Below, one piece after another: positions 28,574 through 55,460 of a stretch of DNA of 64,000 bases. The translations under genes and the position numbers were made by a program. Under the pieces are notes generated by a model, which saw only the letters and a list, made by a program, of their open reading frames with translations, did not search any database and was not told the origin of the DNA. Positions within the stretch are counted from its first letter, which is position 1. Each line of letters starts with the position of its first letter. The stretch comes from Watersipora subatra (lineage: Eukaryota > Bryozoa > Gymnolaemata > Cheilostomatida > Watersiporidae): positions 51,695,196 to 51,759,195 of the forward strand of contig NC_088708.1 of the NCBI RefSeq assembly GCF_963576615.1, written 5' to 3'.

Positions 28574-28855
<282 letters not shown>

Positions 28856-28956
28856 TTATATTGATACACATTAGTAAAAAGAGTGCTCAATGTTTAGAGT
28901 AAAAACAGAGCTGATATAAAACTATGTGTACTAAAAAAACTACAAGTTTAATTAAA

Positions 28957-29011
28957 ACATTTTATTACTTAAAGTTTCGTGCGGTAGGCTTGCACTCTTC
29001 AGATAAAATGT
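28957..29011 (-). ncRNA. Hammerhead ribozyme, sense with the PLE ORF
   Basis: Minus strand: stem I ACATTTTAT, core CTGAAGA, stem II GTGC/GCAC with a 9-nt loop, GAAA, a short stem III CT-TTA-AG, cleavage position TA, then ATAAAATGT closing a 9-bp stem I. All conserved hammerhead core bases are present. Known PLE pLTRs carry minimal hammerheads with just this short stem III. Confidence 0.9.
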
Positions 29012-29065
29012 CAAAGAAAATATTCTACTAGCAGTAAAGCTGTATAAGCGCTAAAAGCTAGAGTC

Positions 29066-29763
29066 TTAAGTGACACTGTTTCTTAGCAGAAATTTATTGG
29101 CATGACGGCAACTGGATAAAATTTCGTTGCGCTTATTCAAGGTGGCTAATTGAGGCTTGCATATTATATAATACTTCTCCCATATACAGAGCTCGCATCT
29201 CTTAGTGATAGGGCTATAAGGTCTAGCAGTTTTTAAGATTGACCATTTGATGTTGTAGTCTAATCCGCTATCCTTTAGTTGCCATATATATTTGCTTAGC
29301 TCAGTGGCATTCCTTTTTGATGTATGGTTGAATGAAGCCTTATGGTTGGTGTATCTAGTTTTGAAAGTATTTTGAGTCAAGCCGACATATGTCTCCTCTG
29401 TTCCGTTGTTGGTGGTGACTGATGCTTGGTAAACAGCGTTCTCTGTTAGGCACTTGCCATCCATTGGGCAGCTGGCTCTATTTCTACAGTTACATGTCCT
29501 TGAGTTATCACCACGAGTAGGCAATAACAAAGCTTTATTGTGAGCGTTGATATGGCTTTTAATATTAGACATGCACCGGTAGCTAAGTTTGATAGTGTTG
29601 GCATTAAATACTTTATGCAGTTTATGGCCAGGTGGAAATTCTGTTCTTAAGATGTTCAGAAACTGCTTTCCTATGTTGGAGGCAACATTCATACTATATG
29701 GCGGGTTATACCATATTATATTCCGTCTTCGCTTTTGCTTGTTGGTCTGGTCGGATTTGGGTA
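29066..29763 (-). CDS. Penelope-like RT C-terminus + GIY-YIG endonuclease (partial)
   Basis: Minus-strand frame open from about 29763 (no start; 5'-truncated) to the stop at 29066; the first internal ATG is 29692. It begins NIIWYNPPYS, a conserved PLE segment after the RT, then a Cys motif CNCRNRASCPMDGKC and a GIY-YIG-type nuclease: VYQASV (GIY position), TYVGLTQ (YIG position), FKTRYTNHKASF with the catalytic Arg, and the CELCIWEKYYII block with the catalytic Glu. About 230 residues remain; the RT catalytic core is missing. The nuclease nicks DNA for target-primed reverse transcription in related elements. Coding sequence here is uninterrupted, unlike other TEs in the window. Confidence 0.9.
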
Positions 29764-29857
29764 AATATGATAGTCACTTAAGACTCACTTTTGTGTCACT
29801 TAAGACTCTAGCTTTTAGCGCTTATACAGCTTTACTGCTAGTAGAATATTTTCTTTG

Positions 29858-29912
29858 ACATTTTATCTGAAGAGTGCAAGCCTACCGCACGAAACTTTAA
29901 GTAATAAAATGT
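29858..29912 (+). ncRNA. Hammerhead ribozyme in the opposite PLE repeat
   Basis: Exact inverted copy of the ribozyme at 28957-29011: ACATTTTAT, CTGAAGA, GTGC/GCAC, GAAA, CT-TTA-AG, TA, ATAAAATGT. It faces away from the element's ORF. Confidence 0.9.
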
Positions 29913-29987
29913 TTTAATTAAACTTGTAGTTTTTTTAGTACACATAGTTTTATATATATATATATATATATATAGATATATATATAA

Positions 29988-53380: not shown

Positions 53381-53463
53381 ATATATATAAATATATATAT
53401 ATATATAGAGTAATGTCCCGCTTCTCTAGCATAGTGCTCTATTACTAGAAGTAAGAGCTAAAG

Positions 53464-53608
53464 TATAAAAGAAGTAGGAGATGACTAAAAATGAGTTTTT
53501 GTTACTAATAGTTTCATGTACAGAGTACAATCATCAGACGATTGTACTCTGTACATGAAACTATTAGTAACAAAAACTCATTTTTAGTCATCTCTTACTT
53601 CTTTTATA
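53464..53608. repeat. 69-bp-arm palindrome with hammerhead 3' halves
   Basis: Arms 53464-53532 and 53540-53608 are inverted copies with one mismatch around a 7-bp centre. Read outward on the minus strand from the centre: CTGATGA, TGTAC/GTACA stem II with a UCU loop, GAAA, CT-ATT-AG, TA, which is a hammerhead core without the 5' strand of stem I. On the plus strand the first core box is degraded (CAGACGA). This looks like two PLE repeat ends joined head-to-head at the ribozyme core. Confidence 0.75.
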
Positions 53609-53670
53609 TATATATACATATACATATATATACTAATAAATTATTTAAAAGCAATACTTATCTTTTTTCT

Positions 53671-53711
53671 CAGCTACTGTCAGTTTCATGATATTATCAT
53701 TCATCAGGCTG
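53671..53711 (-). ncRNA. Hammerhead ribozyme in left arm of second PLE
   Basis: Minus strand: CAGC, core CTGATGA, stem II ATGAT/ATCAT, GAAA, CT-GAC-AG, cleavage TA, GCTG closing stem I (4 bp). Core bases all conserved. Confidence 0.82.
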
Positions 53712-53938
53712 TGTTGAAATAAACAAGATGGTGACTAATCTCTTCCTGGCTATTTTTCCCTCCTTTAGTTCTTATTGTTTAATTTCCTCTTCTTCTGATT
53801 GGTTGTTGGTTAGTAGCTACAAAATGAGAGAGAAGATAACTTCTGGAATGACGACAGGTTGAGACTAATTCAGATTTTTTATTAAGTGTTGCTAAGTCAG
53901 GTCTATTAATGATGTAGTATTTTTCTGTCAAACATAGG

Positions 53939-54287
53939 ACTTTGTGAAACTGACTTTAAAACACGATATAGTAACCACAAAACTAGTATCAAAAATAGCA
54001 CCAAGCGAAACGCAACTGAACTAAGCAAACACATTTGGAAACTGAAAGACCAAGACATTGACTACAAACTAGACTGGACTGTACTAAAACAAACAAAATC
54101 ATACAACAACTCCAGCAAAAGGTGCAACCTATGTTTGACAGAAAAATACTACATCATTAATAGACCTGACTTAGCAACACTTAATAAAAAATCTGAATTA
54201 GTCTCAACCTGTCGTCATTCCAGAAGTTATATTCTCTCTCATTTTGTAGCTACTAACCAACAACTAATCAGAAGAAGAGGAAATTAA
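53939..54287 (+). pseudogene. Truncated GIY-YIG endonuclease of a Penelope-like element
   Basis: The frame is open with no start: LCETDFKTRYSNHK (just after the YIG position, with the catalytic Arg), RNATELSKHIWKLKD, RCNLCLTEKYYIINRP (the Glu of the EK pair), ending RRRGN before TAA at 54285-54287. The first half of the nuclease, including GIY-YIG, is cut off where the inverted left arm begins, so it cannot be functional. No stop lies inside. Confidence 0.85.
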
Positions 54288-54354
54288 ACAATAAGAACTA
54301 AAGGAGGGAAAAATAGCCAGGAAGAGATTAGTCACCATCTTGTTTATTTCAACA

Positions 54355-54395
54355 CAGCCTGATGAATGAGAATATCATGAAACTGACAGTAGCTG
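54355..54395 (+). ncRNA. Hammerhead ribozyme in right arm of second PLE
   Basis: Plus strand, sense with the nuclease frame: CAGC, CTGATGA, stem II ATGA/TCAT, GAAA, CT-GAC-AG, TA, GCTG. It differs from the left-arm copy by one base in stem II. Confidence 0.82.
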
Positions 54396-54579
54396 AGAAA
54401 ACAGATAAGTATTGCTTTTAAATAATTTATTAGTATATAGCTGCTCCAATATATTGTTGAGCACTCTAACTTTAGTAATACTAGTTCATAATTCTTAGGA
54501 ATTTATAGTTTATATATATATAATTTATTTCCATATTATTTCCATAACATTTCCATAATTCTTTTCCATAGTTTTTTAT

Positions 54580-54648: not shown

Positions 54649-55078
54649 GGATCGCTAAATATATTATGGAAATGTTTACTTTTCCATATCCATAAACATA
54701 AATATTTCCATAATTTTATGGAAATGGATATGGAAACTTTATTTTAGAAATATGGAAATGTTATAGAAATGGAAAAAATATGGAAATGAATTATGGAAAT
54801 GTTATGGAAATGGAAATAATATGGAAATGAATTATGGAAATGTTATGGAAATGGAAAAAAATATGGAAATGAATTATGGAAATGGAAATAATATGGAAAT
54901 AAATTATGGAAATGGAAATAATATGGAAATAAATTATGGAAATGGAAATAATATGGAAATAAATTATGGAAAGGGTATGGAAATGGAAATAATATGGAAA
55001 TGGAAATGAATTATGGAAAATTTATGGAAATGGAAATAATATAGAAATGAATTATGGAAATTGTAACATACACGTAAT
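54646..55078. mobile_element. GGAAATG-rich MITE, copy 1 (hAT-like end)
   Basis: Starts CAGGGATCGCTAAATATATT; the interior is an array of GGAAATGAATTATGGAAATG-type units; the end CACGTAATCCAAG is a mutated form of the intact ...CGTAATCCCTG end of copy 2. CAGGGAT/ATCCCTG ends suggest a hAT-type MITE; no 8-bp target duplication was confirmed. Confidence 0.68.
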
Positions 55079-55109
55079 CCAAGATATAAACAGAGGGGAG
55101 TTATATTGT

Positions 55110-55460
55110 ATAGACTAGGCTACATGAATAGACAATGTTAATACACAAACAGCTAACATCAGTGGTATTACAAAAACTATTAAAGGGGTCTGGAAGAAAC
55201 TAACTCAAATTGTCTCTTGCTCGGCTACATGTATAGACAATGGTTACACACAAACCCAGCTAACATCCGTGGTATTACAGAAACTATTAAAGGGGCCTAC
55301 AAGAAATTAACTCAAATTGTCTCTGGACTTGGCTACATGTACAGACAATGGTAGCACAAAACCCAGCTAACATCAGTGGTATTACAGAAACTATTAAGGG
55401 AGTCTGAAAGAAACTATCTCAAATCGTCTCTGACTTAGTTATAGGCAATGGTAGCATACA
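55110..55460. repeat. ~115-bp tandem repeat, three copies
   Basis: Each copy has GGCTACATG(T)A, AGACAATG, CCAGCTAACATC(A/C)GTGG, TATTACAGAAACTATTAA and AACTCAAATTGTCTC in the same order; moderate divergence. It lies between the two MITE copies. Confidence 0.9.

What the first reader, a model, noticed from the sequence alone, without database searches (positions are those of the whole stretch)
28957..29912. Two complete hammerhead ribozymes in mirror-image positions of a Penelope-like element
Both 55-nt motifs contain every conserved core block (CTGAAGA, GAAA, TA cleavage site), a 9-bp stem I, stem II GTGC/GCAC and a short stem III. One is sense to the ORF, the other antisense. In an inverted-repeat element, transcripts from either strand could self-cleave. 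Hammerheads in PLE repeats are known; this inverted identical pair is a clean, testable instance.
Basis: partly seen in the sequence, partly recalled or inferred. Interest (0 to 1): 0.85.

Follow-up and report, generated by a model that had tools for sequence, protein, structure and literature searches.

The report
Mirror-image Penelope insertion carrying two hammerheads
Two self-cleaving-RNA motifs lie face to face because a jumping gene appears to have been copied into both ends of one DNA break; the motifs are of a known kind, but the pattern across copies hints at how such elements insert.

Summary
Confirmed: a perfect 163-nt inverted repeat holds two identical 55-nt type I hammerheads, 28957-29011 (-) and 29858-29912 (+). 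Rfam scores them 26.3 bits (cut-off 34; E 7e-4). A structural scan finds four hammerheads in the window and none in 60 randomised windows; the other two form a second mirrored pair at 53675-53707 / 54359-54391.

The element is a 5'-truncated, probably Neptune-like Penelope-like element (PLE) in (TA)n, not a fixed inverted-repeat element. At 50 places with family copies I count 24 independent head-to-head insertions whose arms, both anchored at the RNA 3' end, vary in length. Of 22 with both ends resolved, 20 start one arm at an inner site (S) and the other at an outer site (T); none is T/T. Three other families agree, one example each. Four of 23 have exactly equal arms. Best reading: both ends of a target break primed reverse transcription, perhaps on one RNA, and the cDNAs were joined. 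The second hammerhead is a by-product, absent in 6 of 23, and read-through RNA should bury both motifs in a 163-bp duplex.

Hammerheads, inverted pseudo-LTRs and one-sided tails in PLEs are published; the T/S pairing makes the insertion mechanism testable.

The parts
28848..28914 (-). 'tail': 3' extension of the long arm beyond the inner start site S; outer start site T at 28848, followed by (TA)n
   Evidence: (tail -66..0 matched 100%)
28915..29774 (-). long (T) arm: 860 nt of the PLE 3' part (pseudo-LTR with HHR plus C-terminal ORF)
28957..29011 (-). hammerhead ribozyme, sense to the ORF; predicted cleavage after 28966
29066..29692 (-). 208-codon remnant of the PLE ORF: Cys-rich stretch then GIY-YIG-like motif (YVGLTQNTFKTRYTNH), stop at 29066
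   Evidence: motif assignment by eye and recalled; no Pfam match
29775..29792 (.). 18-nt filler at the head-to-head junction; includes CACTTAAGACTC, a repeat of sequence in the short arm
29793..29955 (+). short (S) arm: inverted copy of the 3' end, no tail, runs straight into (TA)n
29858..29912 (+). hammerhead ribozyme, antisense to the ORF; predicted cleavage after 29903
53627..54439 (.). second mirrored PLE (family F2): 312-nt arms, 99% complementary; right end T (tail from 54440), left end S
53964..54287 (+). F2 ORF remnant, 107 codons and stop; 54% identical over 95 aa to the F1 remnant
53675..53707 (-). F2 hammerhead, left arm (CTGATGA to cleavage base)
54359..54391 (+). F2 hammerhead, right arm (CTGATGA to cleavage base)
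53464..53608 (.). third mirrored PLE-like end (family F3): 72-nt arms, 1-nt centre, partial hammerhead; left end T (tail about 53409-53463), right end S, sharing the TA tract of F2

Best explanation
A Penelope-like retroelement was inserted head-to-head: reverse transcription was primed from both ends of a break in a (TA)n tract. One cDNA started at the inner 3' site (S) and the other at the outer site (T, leaving the 'tail'), each copied a stretch of element RNA, and the two cDNA 3' ends were then joined with short microhomology or filler. Because both cDNAs begin at the RNA 3' end, both carry the pseudo-LTR and, if long enough, the hammerhead; the antisense hammerhead is a by-product. Shown: the anatomy, the T/S regularity, variable and sometimes equal arm lengths, the (TA)n setting and junction microhomology. 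Inferred: two-sided target priming. More speculative: that the two starts lie on one and the same RNA molecule. The hammerhead's own role, perhaps processing tandem PLE transcripts, was not tested and is described as unknown in PMC7761336.
For: 24 independent F1 insertions (duplicates merged) are two 3'-anchored segments facing each other. Ends: 20 T/S, 2 S/S (L047, L048), 0 T/T, 2 unresolved (L035, L065); P = 6e-5 against independent ends. Three other families, one example each, are also T/S. Equal arms: 4 of 23 exactly, 6 of 23 within 6 nt, against 0.17 and 0.52 expected in permutations. T/S also holds in the equal or near-equal copies L033, L042, L044, L063. Unequal junctions without filler: 8, mean microhomology 2.9 nt against 0.68 for random joins; the other 9 have filler. 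32 of 48 ends (24 insertions: L056 included, L031 not) have strongly alternating AT in the 20 nt outside, against 0.7% of the window. The Anolis PLE protein cleaves and extends both target strands and starts at two adjacent internal sites that match the tail (PMC11167929, main text read). S and T sites share TTTATATC-(A)AGCTC...TTGAGCACTC.
Against: Mirroring is not obligatory: of 17 copies without a clear inverted arm, 14 show no inverted element sequence in the 120 nt past their 5' end, while 3 (L066, L069, L071) show 14-20 nt of it. Two mirrored copies are S/S. Arms of one insertion are not clearly sister sequences: partner strictly closest in 7, tied in 15, beaten in 14 of 36 tests; 4 shared-private against 46 one-arm changes. 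So one RNA molecule, or even one source locus, is not shown. No target-site duplication could be read in (TA)n. L063 has an AT-rich 25-nt filler that could be target DNA between two insertions. PAc starts showed no difference between top and bottom strands in vitro (PMC11167929), which gives no support for a fixed T/S polarity.
Confidence: 0.62

Rival explanations
1. Self-priming: the end of a first cDNA (or of an antisense RNA template, as proposed for Adineta vaga Penelope) folds back and copies itself, giving a head-to-head palindrome.
For: Perfect or near-perfect palindromic centres in some copies (L033, L042, and L044 at a native GAGCTC). Self-priming on an antisense template was proposed in PMC3846280 (Discussion read).
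Against: Copying back should reproduce the first arm's terminus, giving T/T or S/S; observed 20 T/S of 22. The unequal junctions have only 1-6 nt of pairing or filler. L033 has no loop at its centre.
Confidence: 0.18
2. Two separate PLE insertions into the same TA tract happened to lie head-to-head.
For: F2 and F3 in this window share one TA tract, so clustered insertion occurs.
Against: In the 23 junctions read, the arms meet with at most 32 nt between them and, except perhaps L063, no TA tract between; matching T/S ends and equal arms are unexplained.
Confidence: 0.08
3. One reading: a functional inverted-repeat element in which two opposed hammerheads serve transcripts of both strands.
For: Two intact identical HHRs on opposite strands; 51 of 62 arms keep the core.
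Against: Arm lengths are not fixed; 6 of 23 mirrored insertions lack a second complete HHR; read-through RNA is predicted to bury the HHR in a 163-bp duplex.
Confidence: 0.06
4. Assembly artefact (palindromic read or fold-back error).
For: One copy (L031) has a 200-N stretch at its centre, which may be an assembly gap at a palindrome or a withheld stretch.
Against: Termini differ (T on one side, S on the other), arms differ in length and by independent changes (46 one-arm changes); four insertions are present twice in related flanks.
Confidence: 0.02

Closest known systems
Minimal type I hammerheads in pseudo-LTRs of Penelope-like elements (Cervera and de la Pena 2014; Lunse et al. 2017; neither held, both seen only as cited in PMC7761336, passages)
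   Same: Type I topology, tiny stem III, position in the pseudo-LTR of a PLE, tandem units in the same family (L056, L081).
   Different: Those motifs usually lack the non-conserved part of helix III; here stem III has 3 bp and a 3-nt loop. The ACUUUAAGU strand is nearly self-complementary, so dimeric cleavage is plausible but untested.
Anolis Poseidon PLE, PAc (PMC11167929, main text)
   Same: Two adjacent internal RT start sites that explain the tail; protein cuts and extends both target strands; AT-rich targets; HHR near the pLTR/ORF boundary.
   Different: Here both start sites carry TTTATA next to (TA)n targets, so primer-template pairing is possible, whereas PAc starts at a site not homologous to the cut DNA; the T/S pairing across the two ends is counted here.
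Adineta vaga Penelope families with inverted pLTRs (PMC3846280, passages and Discussion)
   Same: Head-to-head inverted pLTRs, tail on one of the inverted pLTRs, 5' truncation, simple AT-rich targets.
   Different: There explained by self-priming on an antisense template; here T/S ends and equal arms favour two separate starts.

Membership tests
Hammerhead ribozyme, type I (RF00163) | conserved core CUGANGA...GAAA...UH with three stems | tested here: met
Hammerhead ribozyme, type I (RF00163) | score at or above Rfam gathering threshold | tested here: not met
   26.3 bits against 34. This is the curators' cut-off, not a structural feature; core and stems are complete
Hammerhead ribozyme, type I (RF00163) | self-cleavage | not testable with these tools
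   needs transcription in vitro
Penelope-like element | RT of PLE type | tested here: inconclusive
   open frame of related copy L032 shows FYPSI and YRDDG by eye (motifs recalled); no RT match in Pfam, NCBIfam or PDB
Penelope-like element | GIY-YIG endonuclease at the C terminus | tested here: inconclusive
   VYQ...YVGLTQNTFKTRYTNH by eye (motif recalled); Pfam and NCBIfam find none; fold without alignment failed, pLDDT 32
Penelope-like element | tandem units giving pseudo-LTRs | tested here: met
   L056 and L081: full unit next to tail plus body in the same direction; L070 partly
Penelope-like element | optional 3' tail, inverted pLTRs, 5' truncation, AT-rich target | tested here: met
   described in PMC3846280
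Penelope-like element | target-site duplication | not testable with these tools
   flanks are (TA)n, where a duplication cannot be told
[quoted passage not shown]
   TCNCRNRASCPMDGKCLTENAVY just before the YVG motif, by eye; definition from PMC3846280 passage. No tree was built
Inverted-repeat (ITR) element | fixed inverted termini as a unit of mobility | tested here: not met
   arm pairs range from 1174/1174 to 860/162 and 497/tail only; 14 copies show no inverted arm

The most novel reading that the evidence does not exclude
PLE RNA carries two tandem RT-start modules (S and T), and one RNA serves both ends of a double-strand break: one end primed at T, the other at S, each cDNA running towards the RNA's 5' end before the two are joined. 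This 'one RNA, two ends' reaction would make mirror-image insertion a normal product of PLE integration, would explain the one-sided tail and the equal arms, and would differ from R2 and LINE-1 target-primed reverse transcription, for which only bottom-strand priming has been shown.
Probability: 0.33. Interest if true: 0.75.

Novelty: new member of a known kind. Interest (0 to 1): 0.45.

Why it matters
How PLEs complete integration is described as not yet validated in PMC11167929 and as unresolved in PMC3846280. A family with young mirrored copies, two sharply defined start sites and an almost exclusive T/S pairing turns that question into a test: one primed end or two, one RNA or two. It also shows that an antisense hammerhead beside a PLE need not be functional.

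Tried and rejected
Rfam at gathering threshold: nothing; the HHR shows only at relaxed threshold. Own-genome Rfam search for RF00163: one sub-threshold match, 73 of 61516 candidates scored, so uninformative. Domain searches of the ORF in Pfam, NCBIfam and PDB gave no RT or GIY-YIG match. AlphaFold of the 208-aa remnant without an alignment: pLDDT 32, discarded. A viral-contig scan found no relative. Idea that hammerhead cleavage sets the arm ends: rejected; the cleavage site lies about 51 nt inside S, none of the inner arm ends listed is there, and tandem copies read through it. Idea that a hairpin follows each start site: visible in F1, but over seven stretches z ran from -1.7 to +1.0 against shuffles, so not claimed. 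Same-molecule test by shared variants: inconclusive; the 16 of 932 discordant cells against 146 expected are confounded by subfamilies (within the younger group only 5 cells were usable, 0 discordant against 1.6; older group 14 of 159 against 57). Covariation within the family: none. A scan for more mirrored repeats in the fetched loci added no further clear T/S case beyond those; L042 holds a mirrored HHR type whose ends I could not type, and L079 1557-1654 a palindrome with both outer sides unlike the T/S pattern.

Copies: the first DNA search scored 40 of 416 candidates and later ones 40 of 446, 40 of 1099 and 40 of 249, so the set is the best-matching part of a larger family; of the new places listed I fetched most, not all. 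Merged or dropped before counting: segmental duplicates L040, L045, L051, L052 and L077 (same junction and flank as L076); L073 (5' end not reached); L056, L070, L081 (tandem or complex). L031 was dropped from arm-length tests (200 N at its centre). L047 can be aligned with an 83-nt arm and 2-nt filler or, as counted, a 64-nt arm and 32-nt filler; neither spans the HHR. Three copies first called unmirrored (L066, L069, L071) carry short inverted pieces; the stretch past L069 could not be fetched.

Full report
OBSERVATION. The inverted repeat 28914-29076 / 29793-29955 is real: 163 nt, fully complementary, 716 nt apart. Each arm holds the same 55-nt hammerhead, at 28957-29011 on - and 29858-29912 on +, with 9-bp stem I, stem II GTGC/GCAC, a 3-bp stem III and the conserved core. 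Rfam Hammerhead_1 gives both 26.3 bits, E 7.1e-4 for the 1.2 kb searched, below the gathering score of 34. A structural scan finds four hammerheads in the 64 kb and none in 60 Markov resamples. The other two, 53675-53707 (-) and 54359-54391 (+), are a second mirrored pair in another family.

HAMMERHEAD SUPPORT. Of 62 family arms that span the motif, 51 keep the core pattern and 35 are identical to the window. Mean minor-allele frequency is 0.012 in the HHR block and 0.037 elsewhere in positions 1-160. As a 55-nt window the HHR ranks 99 of 1125; among the windows printed (starts 1 to 681, every 20 nt) the one at 41 is the lowest, but deeper in the element fewer and younger copies contribute. 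Within the family there is no compensatory change. Six HHR types of this genome keep pairing (76 of 78 cells) with changes on both sides at 11 of 13 pairs, but five were chosen as structural hits, so that pairing is partly by construction. The isolated 55-mer's minimum-energy fold is not the hammerhead fold. Activity was not testable.

THE ELEMENT. On the minus strand a 208-codon remnant ends at 29066. It carries a Cys-rich stretch and a GIY-YIG-like motif; a longer copy, L032, shows FYPSI and YRDDG (read by eye). These motif names are recalled; Pfam, NCBIfam and PDB searches found no such domain. PLE identity therefore rests on architecture: full tandem units with pseudo-LTRs in L056 and L081, a tail, inverted arms, 5' truncation, AT-rich targets, and the Cys-rich region before EN that PMC3846280 gives as typical of Neptune-like PLEs (passage). 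The second mirrored element, F2, encodes a related remnant, 54% identical over 95 aa.

COPIES. The genome (784 Mb) holds many copies. I read 49 fetched loci with family copies plus the window's own: 50 places. After merging duplicates there are 24 mirrored insertions, 17 without a clear inverted arm, 3 tandem or complex, and L073 unresolved. Of the 17, 3 carry 14-20 nt of inverted element sequence just past the 5' end (L066, L069, L071; L069 is cut off by the fetched stretch) and 14 show none in 120 nt. Each mirrored copy is two segments that face each other and start at the element's 3' end; in L035 and L065 one arm lacks its first 35 or 20 nt. Arm lengths differ: 860/162 here, 1383/full length in L032, 1174/1174 in L033, 379/82 in L037, 497 and tail only in L039.

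TWO START SITES. An arm starts either at S or, 67 nt further out, at T. Of 22 mirrored insertions with both ends resolved, 20 are T/S, 2 S/S (L047, L048), 0 T/T; P = 6e-5 against independence. In the window the left, ORF-bearing arm is T and the right is S. Families F2 and F3 of this window and F6 in L057, one example each, show the same: arms identical out to S, then one enters (TA)n directly and the other continues through a family-specific tail. In F1 the S and T sites share a module, TTTATATC-(A)AGCTC...TTGAGCACTC (score 34, highest of 2000 randomised pairs 32).

EQUAL ARMS AND JUNCTIONS. Four of 23 insertions have arms of exactly equal length and 6 of 23 agree within 6 nt; permutations give 0.17 and 0.52. 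One of the four (L044) centres on a native GAGCTC palindrome, which can explain it by annealing; two (L035, L065) have a 23-nt filler at the centre. Of the 17 unequal junctions, 8 show 1-6 nt of microhomology (mean 2.9, random 0.68) and 9 show filler of 1-18 nt, or 32 in L047 where the alignment is ambiguous. The window's 18-nt filler contains a 12-nt repeat of the short arm, as in templated end joining (inference).

MECHANISM. Copying-back models predict the same terminus on both arms. T/S ends argue for two separate starts, one on each side of a break; the Anolis PLE protein is reported to cut and extend both strands and to start at two adjacent sites, without a difference between strands in vitro (PMC11167929, main text). 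Equal arms are expected if both cDNAs run to the 5' end of one RNA. Whether it is one molecule is open: the partner arm is the strictly closest relative in 7 of 36 tests, tied in 15 and beaten in 14.

ROLE OF THE PAIR. Both arms contain an HHR because both contain the pseudo-LTR; 6 of 23 insertions have one arm too short for it. On each strand the catalytic copy is transcribed after its complement, and the 1042-nt minus-strand RNA is predicted to close the complete 163-bp duplex (the plus strand was not folded but has the same two arms). So the claim that transcripts of either strand self-cleave is doubtful for read-through RNA.

KNOWN OR NEW. Minimal type I HHRs in PLE pseudo-LTRs are known (PMC7761336, passages). 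Inverted pLTRs with a tail on one of them, and head-to-head palindromes, are known (PMC3846280, passages and Discussion; inverted pLTRs and short 3' extensions also PMC8969392, passages). I saw no count of T/S pairing or equal arms in what I read; the eight paper searches cover open-licence papers only, most hits were seen as listings, and the main older PLE papers were not held.

Noticed in passing
window 53627-54439: Second mirrored PLE with its own hammerhead pair, T/S ends and an ORF remnant 54% identical over 95 aa to the first; not in the finding.
   Followed up: partly
window 53464-53608: Third mirrored PLE-like end, 72-nt arms around a 1-nt centre that falls at the hammerhead core; shares the TA tract with the second.
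   Followed up: partly
L034 1251-2027: 259-nt tandem repeat (two perfect units, a third at 68%), each with a hammerhead (CTGATGAGGCTTCAATAGCCGAAACAGTACTGTC); resembles a non-LTR retrozyme (recalled), beside a PLE in a TA tract. The same HHR occurs in L031 and L039, a variant in L071.
   Followed up: no
L057 2863-3113; L041 1973-2006; L042 623-665: Further hammerhead types; the L057 one is a mirrored pair with 122-nt arms, a 7-nt centre and T/S ends.
   Followed up: partly
L040 (G000 C1:51600956-51603597): The window's element and its flanks are repeated about 122 kb upstream (98.3% over 2.6 kb): a segmental duplication, not a second insertion.
   Followed up: yes
L031 1569-1768: 200 N at the centre of a mirrored copy: an assembly gap or a withheld stretch; if a gap, mirrored copies may be undercounted.
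   Followed up: no
L081 371-1275: Left arm jumps from position 204 to 875 of the element, a deletion or template jump within one arm.
   Followed up: no
window 54722-55102: ATGGAAATG-type minisatellite next to the second mirrored PLE, followed by a 107-nt tandem repeat at 55143-55431.
   Followed up: no
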